Shown: piece by piece, positions 20,411 through 27,659 of the stretch | Layout: each line of letters starts with the position of its first letter | Numbering within the stretch: the stretch's first letter is position 1 | The notes under the pieces: generated by a model | What the model was told of the DNA's origin: nothing | Databases searched by the model: none | Seen by the model: the letters and a program-made list of their open reading frames with translations, nothing else | Program-made: the position numbers and the translations under genes | Source: Chlorobiaceae bacterium | Lineage (GTDB): Bacteria; Bacteroidota; Ignavibacteria; UBA10030; SZUA-254 | DNA: 43,395 bases | Direction of reading: 5' to 3' | Assembly (NCBI GenBank): GCA_013824245.1 | Contig: PNNN01000011.1 | Location: 1 to 43,395, forward strand

Positions 20411-21181
20411 ATGAGACGAAAAATAATCGCCGGCAATTGGAAGATGAACAAAGACATTCACGAAACCGCAACCTTGATTGCTGAATTAAGGGAACGGATG
20501 AAAGAATTCAAAAATGAAGTGGATGTTGTAATCTGTCCGTCATACACATCATTGGTCGTAGCAAAATCGCTGATCAAAGATTCTTCAATTAAGCTTGGTG
20601 CACAGAACATGTTGCAGCATGATGATGGAGCTTACACCGGTGAAGTATCAACGAAGATGCTCACTGCAATCGGATGTGAATATGTTATACTTGGTCACTC
20701 GGAACGCAGACAGTATTTTAAAGAAACAGATGAGTTGATCAATGCCAAAATAAAGAAAGCATTAAGCGCAGGATTAACTCCAATCGTTTGCATTGGTGAA
20801 ACGCTTGATGAACGCGAAGCAGGTATAACCGATAAAATTATCACAACTCAGGTAAACGGAGTTTTACGCGGATTAACATCATCCGAAGTTGAGAAACTTC
20901 TCATCGCTTATGAACCTGTATGGGCTATCGGTACGGGTAAAAACGCAACCCCCGAACAAGCCAATCAGGTTCATAAGCTTATCCGAAAACAAGTCGGACA
21001 AATGTATTCGTGGGCGATTGCAGAGAAGCTCATTATTCAATACGGCGGCAGCATGAATGCACAAAACGCATCGGCACTTCTCTCGCAATCCGATATTGAT
21101 GGCGGCTTAATCGGCGGGGCAAGCTTAAAAGCCGATTTGTTCATGGCAATCGTCCAGGCAGGGGTTGAATCATCGGGATAA
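20411..21181 (+). CDS. tpiA: Triose-phosphate isomerase
   Basis: This 256-aa enzyme interconverts dihydroxyacetone phosphate and glyceraldehyde 3-phosphate. Catalytic residues are K11 (AGNWKMNK), H96 (ILGHSERR) and E168 ([11 protein letters not shown]). The phosphate-binding QYGGSM and GGLIGGASL motifs are near the C-terminus. ATG at 20411 is chosen because the protein then begins exactly at the conserved [11 protein letters not shown], with AAGGAAAAA upstream; the longer frame would translate the repeat. The gene is complete and of standard length. Confidence 0.97.
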
Positions 21182-21438: not shown

Positions 21439-21468
21439 CTTGTTCATTCACAGACGGGCGAGAAACCC

Positions 21469-24093
21469 ATAACTAATATATCTAAAGCACATACGGTCAG
21501 TTGGAGTATTATTGTTACAATAACGCTCCTTTTTGTTTTTCTCCCCATTGTTGTCGGATATTCTCAAATTATTCCGGCATATTCTAACATCCCTTTTTAC
21601 GTCAATGGCAAACCCACAGCTTCGGGTGCAGACGCGGCATTGTTCCCTGATTCTCCGTATCGATTTAAAATAGATTTGGCAGGGGCGTGGGAATATAGTG
21701 TCGATAAAAAAACTTGGAGCAAAGTCGAAGTGCCAAATTGCTATGACTATTCCGGTAAAATGATTTTTCAGCGTTCTTTTGATATTAAGTCGGAATATTT
21801 AGACAAGTATACCTTCCTTCTTGTAGCGTACGGCATCAATTATCAGAGCGAAGTTACCATCAATGGCAATTTTATAGGAAGACACATCGGCGGCGCGAAT
21901 TCGTTTATATTTCCAATTCCGAATAATACTCTCCAATTAGGATCCGATAACTCAATAAACATATCGGTTAACAGCGAACTTACTCCACGCACAACTTTGC
22001 CGCTCAAACAACATGTTGGTGGATGGAAAACTTATGGAGGAATATTCCGCGATCTATATATACTCGCAGTTCCAAAATTTTTTATCGAAGATGTTTCAGT
22101 AACTTCAAATCTTACTCCTGATTTTAAAACCGCAAAGTTGAACCTGAAGATTGATATTACTGATCGATGGTCGGGGTTGAAATCGGAAACGGGCAACATG
22201 CTTGCTTGTCAGGTAGAAGTTTTCGATAAGCTTACGACTGAATTGGTTGGGCGAAGCGGATTGTTGCAGATTATCCCGAAGACTAACAAAACAATATTTT
22301 CGTCTGCCGAAGTTCAGGTTACGTCGCCAAAATTATGGTCGCCGGAAACTCCCGATCTTTATACTGTTAAATGCCAGATTGTGAATGTAGTTGGGAAAGA
22401 AATTTCTGTCGTCGATGAATTCATTTTCGATCACGGCTTTCGGGAAATCAAGTGGAAAGAAGGCAAGTTAAGCATCAACGACAAGGCGGTGCCGCTAAAA
22501 GGAATCTTGTGGCGTGAAGATCATGAAACATTCGGCGCCGCGATATCATACGACTTGTTAGAGCGCGATGTAGCTTCAATGAAAACGCTTGGAACAAACC
22601 TTGTCCGGTTTTTGTATCCCCCGCATCCTTATATTCTCAATCTGTGTGATCGCTACGGAATATTTGTGTTGGAAGAAATCCCCGTTGATAATGTCCCGGC
22701 AGAGATACTTGCGAAAGATTATTTCCAAGAGATAGCCACAAACTATGCGAAAGAAATGGTGTTGCGCGACCGACGTCATGTGTCGATACTCGGATGGGGT
22801 ATCGGTAATGAATTTGAGGCGGTAGACAATACAGCTTGTGAATTTGTAAACGGATTGAGAAACGTTATCAAATCGCTCGATAAGCGCAGTGTTTACTTCG
22901 CGTCTAAATCATTGCGAAATCCCTGCTTCGAATATGTTGATTTGATCGCCCTCAACAATTTTGGCGGTGACCCGAAATCTTTTAAACAATCTTTAATATC
23001 ATGTATTGCGCAATATCCCGAAAAACCAATAATTGTTGCCAGATACGGCATCGATGTTGAGCACGGAAATCATAACGGTTACAGCGATCCGTACTCCATG
23101 GAAGCGCATGCGCGCTACGCAATGTTATTCTTTAACGTGATGAAAGAAGTTAAAATTGCCGGAAGCATATTTTGGTCGTACAACGATTGGCGCACCGACC
23201 GTCCATCGCTTGTAACGCGGGCAACCGATCCGTTTGTTGTTTCAATGGGACTTGTAGATCTAAGCCGGGAAAAGCGAACTGCATTCGATGTTGTACGGGC
23301 GCTCTTCAACGACGAAAAAGTGCAGGCATTACCTGTCGGTAATTATTCTTCGAATACACCGATCATTTATGTTATCTCCGGTTTCTTGATGCTGATCCTT
23401 TTCGCATTTATGTATAATGCAAATCGTCGGTTTCGCGACAGTGTGAATAGATCGCTCTTCAGAACATATAATTTTTTTGCAGACGTGCGCGATCAGCGCA
23501 TCATCAGTAATTTCCATTCGATCATTTTAGCGGTGGTTATCGCAATTACATGGGCAACCGTTTCTTCAAGCATTGTTACTCATTATCGTTCAAATTTATT
23601 ATTTGATAATCTAATGAGTCAATTTCTTCCCGACTTCGTAAAAGAATGGCTTATAAGATTGATTTGGAGTCCCGCGAAATTTATTTTAGTATTTTCCGGT
23701 ATCATTTTAATCAAACTGTTTTTCATCGCGCTGGTAGTGAAACTGTTTTCGATGCTTGTAAAAACGCGCGTTATGTTCTATCATGCATTTTCCGTATCTA
23801 TCTGGTCTTCTCTTCCTTACATCATTTTGATCCCGATAAGCATGATTCTTTTTCGGCTCATGGAAACCGAATTTTACATTCTCCCTATCTTCATAATTCT
23901 CGGCGTAATAACTCTATGGGTTTTTATTCGGTTGTTAAAAGGAATTTCAATAATCTATGATGTCTATCCGGGCAGAGTGTACGCTTTTGGAATATTGATC
24001 TTAATTTTAATCGGTATTATTATTTTCGGTTATCTTGATTATACGCAATCGACCTCGTTATATCTAAAATATTTTTTGGAGGCGACGAAGTAA
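21469..24093 (+). CDS. GH2-like membrane-fused protein, probable pseudoenzyme; start codon unresolved
   Basis: Numbered from TTG 21640, residues 1-150 form a GH2 sugar-binding domain, about 150-265 the Ig-like domain and 270-560 the TIM barrel. Six transmembrane helices lie at about 575-592, 627-645, 680-706, 715-740, 745-766 and 781-799, resembling Yip1-type membrane domains. The acid/base E391 is present (WGIGNEFEA). The nucleophile Glu of SEYG-type motifs is Arg468 (PIIVARYGID). The same frame continues open upstream to 21439 and codes for a signal peptide (SWSIIVTITLLFVFLP), but has no ATG, GTG or TTG before 21640. The given start is an ATA with GGGCGAG upstream and is a guess; a frameshift near 21465 is an alternative. 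smc starts 2 nt downstream. Confidence 0.7.
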   Translation: MTNISKAHTVSWSIIVTITLLFVFLPIVVGYSQIIPAYSNIPFYVNGKPTASGADAALFPDSPYRFKIDLAGAWEYSVDKKTWSKVEVPNCYDYSGKMIFQRSFDIKSEYLDKYTFLLVAYGINYQSEVTINGNFIGRHIGGANSFIFPIPNNTLQLGSDNSINISVNSELTPRTTLPLKQHVGGWKTYGGIFRDLYILAVPKFFIEDVSVTSNLTPDFKTAKLNLKIDITDRWSGLKSETGNMLACQVEVFDKLTTELVGRSGLLQIIPKTNKTIFSSAEVQVTSPKLWSPETPDLYTVKCQIVNVVGKEISVVDEFIFDHGFREIKWKEGKLSINDKAVPLKGILWREDHETFGAAISYDLLERDVASMKTLGTNLVRFLYPPHPYILNLCDRYGIFVLEEIPVDNVPAEILAKDYFQEIATNYAKEMVLRDRRHVSILGWGIGNEFEAVDNTACEFVNGLRNVIKSLDKRSVYFASKSLRNPCFEYVDLIALNNFGGDPKSFKQSLISCIAQYPEKPIIVARYGIDVEHGNHNGYSDPYSMEAHARYAMLFFNVMKEVKIAGSIFWSYNDWRTDRPSLVTRATDPFVVSMGLVDLSREKRTAFDVVRALFNDEKVQALPVGNYSSNTPIIYVISGFLMLILFAFMYNANRRFRDSVNRSLFRTYNFFADVRDQRIISNFHSIILAVVIAITWATVSSSIVTHYRSNLLFDNLMSQFLPDFVKEWLIRLIWSPAKFILVFSGIILIKLFFIALVVKLFSMLVKTRVMFYHAFSVSIWSSLPYIILIPISMILFRLMETEFYILPIFIILGVITLWVFIRLLKGISIIYDVYPGRVYAFGILILILIGIIIFGYLDYTQSTSLYLKYFLEATK

Positions 24094-24095
24094 CG

Positions 24096-27000
24096 ATGTA
24101 TCTATCGAAGATTGAAGTTATAGGATTCAAGTCTTTTGCACAAAGGATCAATGTTAATTTTGATACCGGAGTGACGGCGATAGTCGGGCCCAATGGTTGC
24201 GGAAAAACGAATATCGTTGATGCAATCCGCTGGGCACTCGGCGAGCAAAAATACAGCACCCTTCGCAGCGATAAGATGGAAGATGTGATTTTTAACGGAA
24301 CAAAAACACGGAAACCGCTCGGTCTTGCAGAAGTTTCTTTAACAATCGAGAATACAAAGGGAATTCTTCCAACCGATTATTCCGAGGTTACAATCACACG
24401 ACGCGTTTTCAGATCGGGTGAAAGCGAATATCTTCTGAATAAAGTTCCATGCCGCCTGAAAGATATTGTTGATCTTTTCATGGATACCGGTATGGGAAGC
24501 GATGCCTACTCCGTAATTGAATTGAAAATGGTTGAAACAATTCTCTCCGACAAAACAGACGAGCGGCGAAAATTGTTCGAAGAAGCGGCAGGTGTAACTA
24601 AATATAAAGTCCGCCGTAAAGCAGCCCTGCGCCGGTTGGACGATGTTCAACAAGACCTTGCACGGGTCAATGATATTGTAAAGGAAGTTCAAAAAACTGT
24701 AAACTCGCTTGAACGACAGGCAAAAAAAGCCGAACAGTTTAACGAAGTATCCGGAAGATTGAAGGCGCTCGAGGTCGATTTGCTTGAACGGGAGTATTCT
24801 CACCTGTACGGCAAACTCAATCCCCTTGAAGAGAAATTTAAAATTGCTACAACCGATAAATCTGAAATTGATGCGGCTTTAAGGGCAGAAGAAAATCGTG
24901 TTGAGGCGATGCAGCAAGAATTAAACGAACGCGAAAAAGAACTTGCATTGGCGCAAACATCAACTGCATCGAAGTTTGATGAAATTCATCGCATCGAGGA
25001 ACGCGCGTTAGTTGCGAAGGAACGGCGCAATTCGCTTGAAGTGAACATCGAGCGATATCAAAAAGAAAAACTCGATTTGATTCAGCAACAGGAAACACTC
25101 TCGATAGAAAAAATCACATTTCATCAACGAAAAACAGAACAAAGTCGGAATATTTCCGAATTGGAAAATATTTTCACCCAAGAAAAACAACTCTATGCGA
25201 ATCTTACGCGAGAATATGACGAAAGACAATTGCAAGTCGGTTCGCTGAAAGATGTAATTTTAAAAACGGCTCATGAGAATGTTGAAAAACGCGGAGAAAT
25301 GGATCGCATCAAAGCCCGCATCGATAACTTAAAAGGAAGGATCGACCGGGCTACCGAAGAAAGTGCATTGTACGATGCGGATATACTGCGGGTGGAAGAA
25401 CAGATAAAAGAATTATCAGCCAAAGATCGCGATTTACGGAAACAATTCGCCGAAGCAGAAGTGCGATTGTTCACGCATCAACAGACAAAAGAACAGCATC
25501 GCGTGAATATTGATCTGCTTAGAAAAAAGGGGAGCGATATTTCTTATGAAATTGAAAGAAAGAAATCGAAAATTGAATTTCTCCTCCGCATGCTTGAAGG
25601 GTATGAAGGATCATCCGAGGGAACGCGATTTCTTTTAACTGACGAAGTTTGGAAGAAGAAAAATTTTGTTACCGTTGGAGACTTGATTCAAGTCGATGAG
25701 AAATACCGTGAGCCGATCGAAGCGGCGCTTGGAGATTTCGCTCAGGCAGTTGTCGTAGAGAGTATCAATGACGGTCACACCGCGATTGATGAACTAAAAC
25801 GATTGGGCAAAGGAAAGGCGAGTTTCATTAGTTTAGAATCGCTGCCAATCAAGATAAAACGTGGAAAAATATCATTGCCGAAGTCATGCATTAGCGCTGT
25901 TGATGTTGTGAAATGCGAGTCAAAATACAAACAATTGATCGAATTTTTATTGGATGATGTTTTTATTTTAGTAGATGTGTCAAATCAATCGGAGATATTA
26001 AATCGGGTAACCGGTAAAAGAATTATTACGCTCGACGGTTATTTGCAATCCAGTTCCGGTTTTCTGCGTGGTGGCAGTAAGAAGCCGGGTGAAGGCGGAT
26101 ACATAAACAAGAAATCACAAATTGCAGAGCTTGAACGCGAAATCTCAACTCTCCAAGATGAGCTTAAACAAGTTGAAGAACAGCACAATCAGAAGCAACA
26201 AGAACTTAATCTAATACATATCGATGATGACCGGAAAGCTGTAAAAGCGGTAGAGAAAGAGATGACTTCGATAGAAATGCGTATTGCGCAATTGGAATTC
26301 GAGAAGAAACGCGCGAACGATGGACTTGAGCGAAATCGCCTTGAGATTAACACCGTGCAGGATGAAATTGTCGTGATGGGCGATCAACATCAGAAGTTAG
26401 GCGATGATCTTGCGTTGCTCGAAGAGCGCAAGTCTCAAAAAGAAATTGAACTTGAGAATGCCGAACAATTACTGGAGCAAACAGAGTCGGCGTGGACGGA
26501 TAAAGCCAAGAAAGTTAACGAACTTGAAATAAAGGTAGTAAAGTTACAGGGTGAAATTAAAAATTTATCCCGCGATCTTGAACGGGCGGAAGAACGTCGG
26601 AAAGATATTGATTTAACCCTTGAACGTCGTGACTCTGAAATTAAACATGCACAAACAGAAATTTATCGTCTGGAAAATGAGAGTGCAGAGATCGAGAAGC
26701 AAATAACTGTTCTGCAAAATGAGTATGGTCTCTTGCTGGAGCAGAAAAATGATATCGAAAAGAAATATATAGCTTTACGAACTGATATTCATAAGATCGA
26801 ATTGAAAATAAAAGATGAGCGCAGATTACACGATGATTCAGTAGCGGCGGCGCACGATCTGGAGATGAAATTATCCGAAATTCGATCAGGCATCGAACAT
26901 GTTAAACAACGCGCTCAGGAAGAGTTCGAATTGGAGCTTCAGGTAAAAAGTTATCCTGATGATGAATGGGTGAATTTTGCACACCTACGCGAAGAAGTGA

Positions 27001-27659
27001 AAATATTGAAGGATCGGATCAAAATTCTAGGCGCTATCAATTTTGCCGCATTCGATGAGTTCAACACCGAAAGCCAACGCCTCAACTTCCTAACTCAACA
27101 GCGCGACGATCTATTGGAAGCCGAGAAAACGCTTCTCAGCACTATCGAAGAAATAAACAACACAGCTCAGAGAAAATTTCTTGAAACATTCTTAGCCATT
27201 CGCACCAATTTCATCACAACGTTCAAAGAATTGTTCATGGAAGGTGATGAATGCGATCTGAAATTAGAAGAGGGTGTTGATCCGCTTGAAGCGAATATCG
27301 AAATAATCGCTAAACCGCGCGGTAAGAGACCGACCTCCATTGATTTGCTTTCAGGCGGAGAAAAAACGTTAACGGCAATTGCTCTTCTCTTTGCAATATA
27401 TCTGGTGAAACCAAGCCCGTTCTGTATTTTAGACGAAGTTGATGCACCGTTGGACGATTCAAACATCGATCGTTATGCGCGGATATTGAAAAAATTTTCA
27501 GGTAATACACAATTTATAGTAGTAACACATAACAAGAGAACAATGGAATCGGCGCAAGCCCTTTACGGCGTTACGATGGAAGAGGAAGGCGTGTCGAAAA
27601 TTGTTACGGTAAGGTTCAACGAAGAAGCACGCGTTCGTTCTGCCACTGTTACAAATTGA
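24096..27659 (+). CDS. smc: Chromosome segregation protein SMC
   Basis: This 1187-aa protein is a complete condensin-type ATPase. The N-terminal head has Walker A GPNGCGKTN (about residues 32-40) and FKSFAQR. Coiled coils run from about 165 to 500 and 670 to 1010. The hinge at about 510-665 contains VTVGDLIQVDEKYREPIEAALG, followed by SGFLRGGSKK. The C-terminal head has the signature LLSGGEKTLTAIALLFAIY and Walker B PFCILDEVDAPLDDSN. It organises and segregates the chromosome together with ScpA and ScpB, which are not in this window. It starts 2 nt behind the GH2-like gene, so the two are probably one transcript, although their roles look unrelated. Confidence 0.97.
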   Translation: MYLSKIEVIGFKSFAQRINVNFDTGVTAIVGPNGCGKTNIVDAIRWALGEQKYSTLRSDKMEDVIFNGTKTRKPLGLAEVSLTIENTKGILPTDYSEVTITRRVFRSGESEYLLNKVPCRLKDIVDLFMDTGMGSDAYSVIELKMVETILSDKTDERRKLFEEAAGVTKYKVRRKAALRRLDDVQQDLARVNDIVKEVQKTVNSLERQAKKAEQFNEVSGRLKALEVDLLEREYSHLYGKLNPLEEKFKIATTDKSEIDAALRAEENRVEAMQQELNEREKELALAQTSTASKFDEIHRIEERALVAKERRNSLEVNIERYQKEKLDLIQQQETLSIEKITFHQRKTEQSRNISELENIFTQEKQLYANLTREYDERQLQVGSLKDVILKTAHENVEKRGEMDRIKARIDNLKGRIDRATEESALYDADILRVEEQIKELSAKDRDLRKQFAEAEVRLFTHQQTKEQHRVNIDLLRKKGSDISYEIERKKSKIEFLLRMLEGYEGSSEGTRFLLTDEVWKKKNFVTVGDLIQVDEKYREPIEAALGDFAQAVVVESINDGHTAIDELKRLGKGKASFISLESLPIKIKRGKISLPKSCISAVDVVKCESKYKQLIEFLLDDVFILVDVSNQSEILNRVTGKRIITLDGYLQSSSGFLRGGSKKPGEGGYINKKSQIAELEREISTLQDELKQVEEQHNQKQQELNLIHIDDDRKAVKAVEKEMTSIEMRIAQLEFEKKRANDGLERNRLEINTVQDEIVVMGDQHQKLGDDLALLEERKSQKEIELENAEQLLEQTESAWTDKAKKVNELEIKVVKLQGEIKNLSRDLERAEERRKDIDLTLERRDSEIKHAQTEIYRLENESAEIEKQITVLQNEYGLLLEQKNDIEKKYIALRTDIHKIELKIKDERRLHDDSVAAAHDLEMKLSEIRSGIEHVKQRAQEEFELELQVKSYPDDEWVNFAHLREEVKILKDRIKILGAINFAAFDEFNTESQRLNFLTQQRDDLLEAEKTLLSTIEEINNTAQRKFLETFLAIRTNFITTFKELFMEGDECDLKLEEGVDPLEANIEIIAKPRGKRPTSIDLLSGGEKTLTAIALLFAIYLVKPSPFCILDEVDAPLDDSNIDRYARILKKFSGNTQFIVVTHNKRTMESAQALYGVTMEEEGVSKIVTVRFNEEARVRSATVTN

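What the first reader, a model, noticed from the sequence alone, without database searches (positions are those of the whole stretch)
21640..24093. GH2 glycosidase-like protein with the nucleophile Glu replaced by Arg and fused to six transmembrane helices
PIIVARYGID aligns with the PIII(T/S)EYG(V/A)D motif of GH2 beta-glucuronidase-type enzymes, putting Arg where the catalytic nucleophile Glu should be, while the acid/base NE motif remains. The C-terminal half of about 240 aa is a Yip1-like membrane domain. This looks like a membrane-bound glycan-binding pseudoenzyme or sensor, co-transcribed with smc.
Basis: partly seen in the sequence, partly recalled or inferred. Interest (0 to 1): 0.65.

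Follow-up and report, generated by a model that had tools for sequence, protein, structure and literature searches.

The report
Membrane-anchored dead glycosidase beside smc
A bacterial membrane protein carries an outward-facing domain shaped like a sugar-cutting enzyme that has lost its cutting residues in most relatives, yet it has been kept for a very long time, usually right next to the chromosome-organising gene smc, so it probably works as a binding or scaffold part and not as the sugar-degrading enzyme that it resembles.

Summary
In window 21439-24093 a GH2 fold (beta-glucuronidase type) has Arg at the nucleophile position (23041-23043), Asn-Glu at the acid/base position, and six transmembrane helices behind it. 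The annotated TTG start (21640) is too late; it cuts off a signal-peptide-like stretch.

Relatives change the interpretation. Among 177 distinct full-length sequences the nucleophile Glu is present in 33, Asn-Glu in 13, both Glu in 6 (one clade, with a Candidatus Kryptonia MAG), neither in 117; Arg in 25. All 20 ordinary GH2 proteins that I took from genomes of the order keep both. So this is mostly a pseudoenzyme family, but the Arg is not conserved, and intact-looking members of identical architecture exist.

The GH2 part is under strong purifying selection, yet four genomes lack it and keep only the membrane domain, still upstream of smc. The best-conserved stretch is the putatively cytosolic loop YNFFADVRDQR. 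smc lies directly downstream in 139 of 172 loci with enough flank; the 27 unlinked loci that are in the tree are exactly one clade.

Best reading: a membrane scaffold or receptor with a recruited, mostly dead GH2 ectodomain. Function is inferred, not shown.

The parts
21439..24093 (+). whole open frame (884 codons) of the GH2/membrane protein; start codon unresolved (no ATG/GTG/TTG before the signal-peptide-like stretch; ATT at 21508/21511 possible)
21508..21567 (+). signal-peptide-like hydrophobic stretch (IIVTITLLFVFLPIVVGYSQ), upstream of the annotated TTG start at 21640
   Evidence: read from the sequence; hydrophobic N-termini stand at this place in relatives; no signal-peptide program was run
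21721..22074 (+). GH2 sugar-binding (jelly-roll) domain, PF02837
   Evidence: E 5.4e-8
22081..22416 (+). GH2 immunoglobulin-like domain, PF00703
   Evidence: E 2.2e-12
22450..23205 (+). GH2 TIM barrel, PF02836
   Evidence: E 4.3e-26; Foldseek E 1.3e-41 to 8DHE
22807..22812 (+). Asn-Glu of the acid/base motif (kept here; in 13 of 177 family sequences)
23041..23043 (+). Arg at the nucleophile position (Glu in 33 of 177 family sequences and 20 of 20 control GH2s)
23074..23091 (+). conserved family motif NGYSDP after the nucleophile strand (the Gly in 144 of 144, the Asp in 122 of 144)
23347..24090 (+). Yip1-like membrane domain, six long helices taken as transmembrane (about 23362-23421, 23509-23583, 23671-23751, 23812-23859, 23869-23958, 23968-24048)
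   Evidence: model; Yip1 scores
23470..23499 (+). NFFADVRDQR, core of the best-conserved zone of the protein; loop predicted cytosolic (7 R/K)
24096..27659 (+). smc, starting 2 nt after the stop codon
   Evidence: linkage counted
20411..21181 (+). tpiA (triosephosphate isomerase), upstream neighbour
   Evidence: upstream in 75 of the 144 loci, where missing upstream sequence was not set aside

Best explanation
This is a membrane protein, one copy per genome, of Ignavibacteria and related Bacteroidota lineages. A signal peptide exports a GH2-fold ectodomain to the periplasm; six helices of a Yip1-like domain hold it in the inner membrane and expose a strongly conserved basic/aromatic loop (YNFFADVRDQR) to the cytosol. 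The GH2 domain was recruited from a real glycosidase (a clade with a Candidatus Kryptonia MAG still has both catalytic Glu) and has lost catalysis repeatedly, while remaining under purifying selection as a folded binding or scaffold module. Shown by computation: fold, architecture, loss of catalytic residues, purifying selection, smc linkage, survival of the membrane domain alone in four genomes. Inferred: periplasmic side, non-catalytic binding role, signal or scaffold transfer through the cytosolic loop. About 0.9 that most members, this one included, are not retaining GH2 glycosidases; about 0.5 for the scaffold/receptor mechanism as a whole.
For: Catalytic pair lost: neither Glu in 117 of 177, both in 6 of 177, against 20 of 20 ordinary GH2s with both in the same alignment. 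Changes are repeated: at least 9 at the nucleophile column and 17 at the acid/base column (the latter scored as Asn-Glu, other Glu, or no Glu) on a FastTree tree of the GH2 part built without those motifs. The fold is kept (pLDDT 92.1; GH2 enzymes at E 1.3e-41 for the best row, TM by target length 0.57-0.84 in the 50 rows shown). dN/dS 0.035-0.17 for sandwich and barrel in 15 close pairs that I chose, similar to the membrane part; 1 of 45 region values failed, and dS exceeds 1 in several. Core gene: 59 of 60 relatives match, 54 of 54 of good quality, 53 of them over the full length; 71 of 73 genomes of the class in the phylum sample (counted); one membrane-domain match per genome in 87 of 88. 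Membrane domain alone next to smc in L205, L340, L341, L342, whose genomes give no match to the window's GH2 part. Cytosolic loop 1 is the most conserved zone (0.68 against 0.34-0.46 for GH2 parts and 0.39-0.58 for TM helices).
Against: No ligand, partner or phenotype is known. Six of 177 members look catalytically intact, so catalysis is not lost family-wide. Absence of the canonical Glu pair does not exclude another chemistry. Topology rests on positive-inside reasoning and a model made without a membrane. smc linkage fails in 33 of 172 loci. The phylum tally is a lower bound: a distant member next to smc (L375) was missed by the profile search. The tree is a quick FastTree with long branches and composition warnings, and a count of changes cannot tell loss from gain.
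Confidence: 0.5

Rival explanations
1. Glycan-binding sensor: the degenerate GH2 pocket binds a periplasmic sugar (for example lipid A, peptidoglycan or exopolysaccharide fragments) and the membrane domain passes the signal inside.
For: GH2 ancestry and kept fold; basic conserved cytosolic loop; lpxB and lpxK lie a few genes downstream (lpxK by Pfam, lpxB named by me from the sequence; homologues of both seen in many of the longer loci).
Against: Two further pocket columns are not conserved (Trp 47 of 144, Asn 48 of 144), and the catalytic positions take many residues, unlike a preserved binding site; Pfam shows no signalling domain; the ectodomain can be lost.
Confidence: 0.2
2. The protein is functionally tied to Smc: a membrane factor that links the SMC complex or chromosome segregation to the envelope, hence the durable gene pair.
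For: smc directly downstream in 139 of 172 full-length loci, in 4 of 4 membrane-only loci and all 6 loci of the Kryptonia-MAG clade, and next to the far-diverged L375. The 27 unlinked loci present in the tree are exactly the 27 rows of one clade (support 98), so the linkage looks ancestral and lost once there. The cytosolic loop is the most conserved zone.
Against: That clade keeps the protein without the linkage, as do barrel-only L218-L221 and split L222. tpiA is also a frequent neighbour (75 of 144), so inertia of gene order can explain the pair. Of 18 smc loci taken from genomes that gave no, weak or split matches (two of them apparently one genome), 17 showed no homologue in the upstream stretch read (1500 bases, 767 in L367; the four longest frames per locus tested with the membrane profile only); L375 is the exception.
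Confidence: 0.15
3. It is an active, membrane-bound glycosidase with a non-canonical mechanism; the Glu losses are compensated by other residues.
For: Six members keep both Glu; the domain is under purifying selection.
Against: 117 of 177 lack both Glu and those columns show no common replacement; four genomes lack the domain altogether.
Confidence: 0.1

Closest known systems
GH2 beta-glucuronidases/galacturonidases (PDB 8DHE, 5Z1A, 6NCY)
   Same: three-domain GH2 fold, 19-24% identity in the Foldseek rows shown, alignable catalytic motifs
   Different: nucleophile Glu absent in 144 of 177 family sequences, this one included; C-terminal six-helix membrane domain; near-universal in its class
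Yip1 domain family (Pfam PF04893)
   Same: multi-helix membrane domain scoring at or above the curated cut-off in several members (up to 36.0 bits)
   Different: fused to an exported GH2 fold, family-specific NFFADxRDQR loop; profile comparison with stand-alone Yip1 proteins of these genomes only 37% probability, with three wrong ORFs in that set
Klotho and 4F2hc/rBAT (recalled, not tested): animal membrane pseudoglycosidases
   Same: works-like comparison only: dead glycosidase ectodomain on a membrane protein used for binding or as a chaperone
   Different: other glycosidase families (GH1, GH13; recalled), animals, one membrane helix
DUF4271 (PF14093), membrane proteins found in 28 of 118 genomes of the phylum sample over the cut-off
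   Same: membrane protein of similar size, weak profile score to the window domain (E 0.41)
   Different: profile-profile probability 15%, no NFFADxRDQR motif that I could see in the sequences; not taken as related

Membership tests
GH2 glycoside hydrolase (as a fold/sequence family) | jelly-roll, Ig-like and TIM-barrel domains with GH2 profiles | tested here: met
   Pfam above cut-off for all three; Foldseek E 1.3e-41
GH2 glycoside hydrolase (as an active retaining enzyme) | catalytic nucleophile Glu on the strand before the Y/F-G motif | tested here: not met
   Arg in the window; Glu in 33 of 177 family sequences, 20 of 20 controls
GH2 glycoside hydrolase (as an active retaining enzyme) | acid/base Asn-Glu | tested here: met
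   met in the window, but only in 13 of 177 of the family
Yip1 domain family (PF04893) | profile score at or above the curated cut-off | tested here: inconclusive
   window 28.3/28.6 against 28.6 in the genome search, 18.6 for the domain alone in hmmscan; relatives up to 36.0
Yip1 domain family (PF04893) | same three-dimensional fold | not tested
   no Yip1 structure was compared; Foldseek of the membrane model against the PDB gave no match with E up to 0.001; the second look gave Z 5.5 at best
DUF4271 | profile score above cut-off | tested here: not met
   10.9 bits against 29.7
membrane pseudoglycosidase of Klotho/4F2hc type (works like) | non-catalytic ectodomain with a proven binding partner | not testable with these tools
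   needs biochemistry

The most novel reading that the evidence does not exclude
A Bacteroidota membrane protein is a long-standing partner of Smc: its Yip1-like domain and cytosolic NFFADxRDQR loop couple the SMC machinery to the envelope, and a recruited dead GH2 ectodomain, lost in some lineages, senses or grips the periplasmic side. Chromosome segregation would be tied to the cell envelope through a pseudoglycosidase.
Probability: 0.13. Interest if true: 0.8.

Novelty: new variant of a known kind. Interest (0 to 1): 0.58.

Why it matters
A near-universal protein of a bacterial class looks like a sugar-degrading enzyme by sequence but mostly lacks the catalytic residues, so enzyme inventories of Ignavibacteria that rest on GH2 hits alone would count it wrongly. 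The family contains intact-looking, dead, barrel-only and ectodomain-less versions, a natural series for studying how an enzyme becomes a pseudoenzyme. The smc linkage gives a directly testable hypothesis about a link between envelope and chromosome. The listings of my paper searches showed no description of this architecture; most subscription papers are not in that library, and apart from one paper I saw listings only.

Tried and rejected
DUF4271 as a counterpart of the membrane domain: weak profile score and 15% profile-profile probability; rejected. PDB match for the membrane domain: none with E up to 0.001; the second look gave mostly GPCR-like seven-helix chains at Z 5.5 or less, within the noise that the tool warns of for helical bundles. 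A stand-alone Yip1 profile held three wrong ORFs (L264, L266, L269) and gave 37%; I did not clean and repeat it.

The first family count (144 sequences) wrongly dropped 15 class members when duplicates were removed; it was repeated with 159 and then 177 sequences. The tree, zone conservation and dN/dS, pocket columns and tpiA count still rest on the 144 set. The smc count (106 yes, 31 no, 7 too short) missed four loci with a longer smc frame and is superseded (139 yes, 33 no, 5 too short, of 177). Of 195 distinct loci, 18 had frames under 780 aa (contig ends, split frames, barrel-only or membrane-only forms) and were left out of the residue counts. The 177 include genomes of the Kryptonia-MAG order fetched on purpose, so the fractions are not an unbiased sample; before that they were 28 (nucleophile Glu), 28 (acid/base Glu), 8 (Asn-Glu), 1 (both) and 104 (neither) of 159. 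In three of 177 the nucleophile column is a gap. The 20 controls are my choice from the partial matches (15 genomes). The named search was capped (80 of 539 confirmed stretches kept). The alignments for the structure jobs hold 67 of 75 full-length and 70 of 80 membrane-domain loci, besides the window.

G208, one of the two class genomes without the gene, also gave no smc match, so an assembly gap is possible there; the other, G258, has smc without a homologue upstream. Corrected on that check: TM and identity ranges, the count of smc loci without a homologue (17 of 18, not 16), and the number of full-length matches.

Papers: I read passages on Yip1 in PMC5898192; all other papers only as search listings. 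The active site in three dimensions was not inspected, because model coordinates were not in the Python box.

Full report
What is there. The reported ORF 21640-24093 exists. The open frame begins at 21439 and contains, before the listed TTG, a signal-peptide-like segment and conserved residues of the family, so the real protein starts earlier. No ATG, GTG or TTG precedes that segment in the window; several relatives have a TTG near the corresponding place. Pfam recognises the three GH2 domains. Position 23041-23043 is Arg where solved GH2 enzymes have the nucleophile Glu; 22807-22812 is the acid/base Asn-Glu.

Is the alignment right? Twenty ordinary GH2 proteins from 15 genomes of the same order, none with a membrane-domain hit, were aligned with the family. 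All 20 have Glu and Asn-Glu in the two columns. The Arg is therefore a true substitution and not a shifted alignment.

The family. 59 of 60 relatives match (54 of 54 of good quality), 53 of them over the full length; the rest are pieces, several at contig ends. With the membrane domain as query, 88 of 296 genomes of a phylum sample match: by my count of the listed rows 71 of 73 of the class and 17 of 223 others, taking the unlisted misses to lie outside the class. A second draw of the class gives 59 of 61 and overlaps the first. Named relatives are mostly metagenome-assembled genomes titled Ignavibacteria, Ignavibacteriales, Bacteroidota, Chlorobiota, Kapabacteria or Kryptonia (80 kept of 539 confirmed stretches). 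The phylum figure is a lower bound: L375, in a genome scored as lacking the gene, has a degenerate barrel plus membrane protein ending 14 nt before smc, E about 1e-16 to family members in a phmmer search of 148 sequences.

Catalytic residues. In 177 distinct full-length sequences: nucleophile Glu 33, acid/base Glu 33, Asn-Glu 13, both Glu 6, neither 117. In the less targeted set of 159: 28, 28, 8, 1, 104. Nucleophile letters in the 177 are S 38, E 33, R 25, G 20, K 19, A 12 and others. The six with both are L127 and its relatives L329-L333 (71-87% identical to L127); L127 is titled Candidatus Kryptonia, the others are unnamed. On a FastTree tree of the GH2 part rooted with the controls, the 144 family rows are one group (support 99) and at least 9 and 17 changes are needed at the two columns. 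With all controls intact, the simplest reading is repeated loss.

Selection and modularity. In 15 close pairs dN/dS is 0.035-0.17 for sandwich and barrel and 0.024-0.16 for the membrane part; one sandwich value failed on an ambiguous base, and several dS values exceed 1. The dead domain is maintained. Yet the whole GH2 domain is missing in L205, L340, L341 and L342, which keep the membrane domain with its NFFADxRD loop and lie directly before smc. Their four genomes give no match at E up to 0.001 to the window's GH2 part. L218-L221 have a degenerate barrel without recognisable sandwich domains. So the membrane domain is the durable part.

Membrane domain. AlphaFold2 gives six long helices with good confidence (92.9; 92.1 for the whole protein). 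Loop 1 holds seven Arg/Lys and is the best-conserved zone (0.68; zones drawn by me), which with the exported N-terminus suggests N-out topology with loop 1 in the cytosol. Yip1 scores sit at the Pfam cut-off for the window and above it for some relatives. The passages read in PMC5898192 say that this Pfam family occurs also in bacteria and eukaryotes and that yeast Yip1p promotes Rab-dependent vesicle formation; this gives no bacterial function.

Neighbourhood. The gene ends 2 nt before smc. smc is directly downstream in 139 of 172 loci with enough sequence and not in 33; 5 more are too short. The 27 unlinked loci that are in the tree are exactly the rows of one clade of 27 (support 98), which includes the two Kapabacteria-titled loci L155 and L162; the other six (L224, L226, L231, L234, L235, L237) are not in the tree. 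In some of them heat-shock-type genes follow (six or seven loci; named by me from the sequence). tpiA is upstream in 75 of 144. Linkage also holds for the membrane-only forms and the Kryptonia-MAG clade, but not for L218-L222. It may reflect joint function or old gene order.

Interpretation. The best explanation is a membrane scaffold or receptor with a repurposed GH2 ectodomain. Sugar binding in the old pocket is less likely, since two further pocket columns also vary; that these columns correspond to sugar-contacting residues is recalled, with the correspondence read from the alignments. A link to Smc is possible and testable, but not shown.

Noticed in passing
window 21439-21640: No ATG, GTG or TTG precedes the signal-peptide-like stretch in frame; the true start may be a rare codon such as ATT. 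Several relatives have TTG near this place, suggesting weak initiation.
   Followed up: partly
L205 3842-4723 (+), L340, L341, L342: Stand-alone versions of the membrane domain (286-312 aa open frames) directly upstream of smc, without a GH2 match in the genome.
   Followed up: yes
L218-L221: Proteins of 529-582 aa with only a degenerate TIM barrel and the membrane domain; no smc within the roughly 8.6 kb loci.
   Followed up: partly
L375, upstream of smc: Very diverged family member (barrel remnant plus membrane domain) ending 14 nt before smc in a genome that the profile search scored as lacking it.
   Followed up: partly
L222 (genome in a single 2.19 Mb contig): The gene is split over three open frames (569, 424 and 201 aa), so it may be a broken copy or a sequencing error.
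   Followed up: no
L259, L260, L262, L263, L268, L270, L271, L273, L275-L277: Stand-alone Yip1 proteins of the order begin with a conserved CxxC...CxxC zinc-ribbon-like motif.
   Followed up: no
L166, L170, L173, L176, L178-L182, L188, L189, L193, L195-L199, L201, L212, L213, L215, L217: Members that keep the nucleophile Glu but lack the acid/base Glu, the opposite of the window; the two columns change independently.
   Followed up: yes
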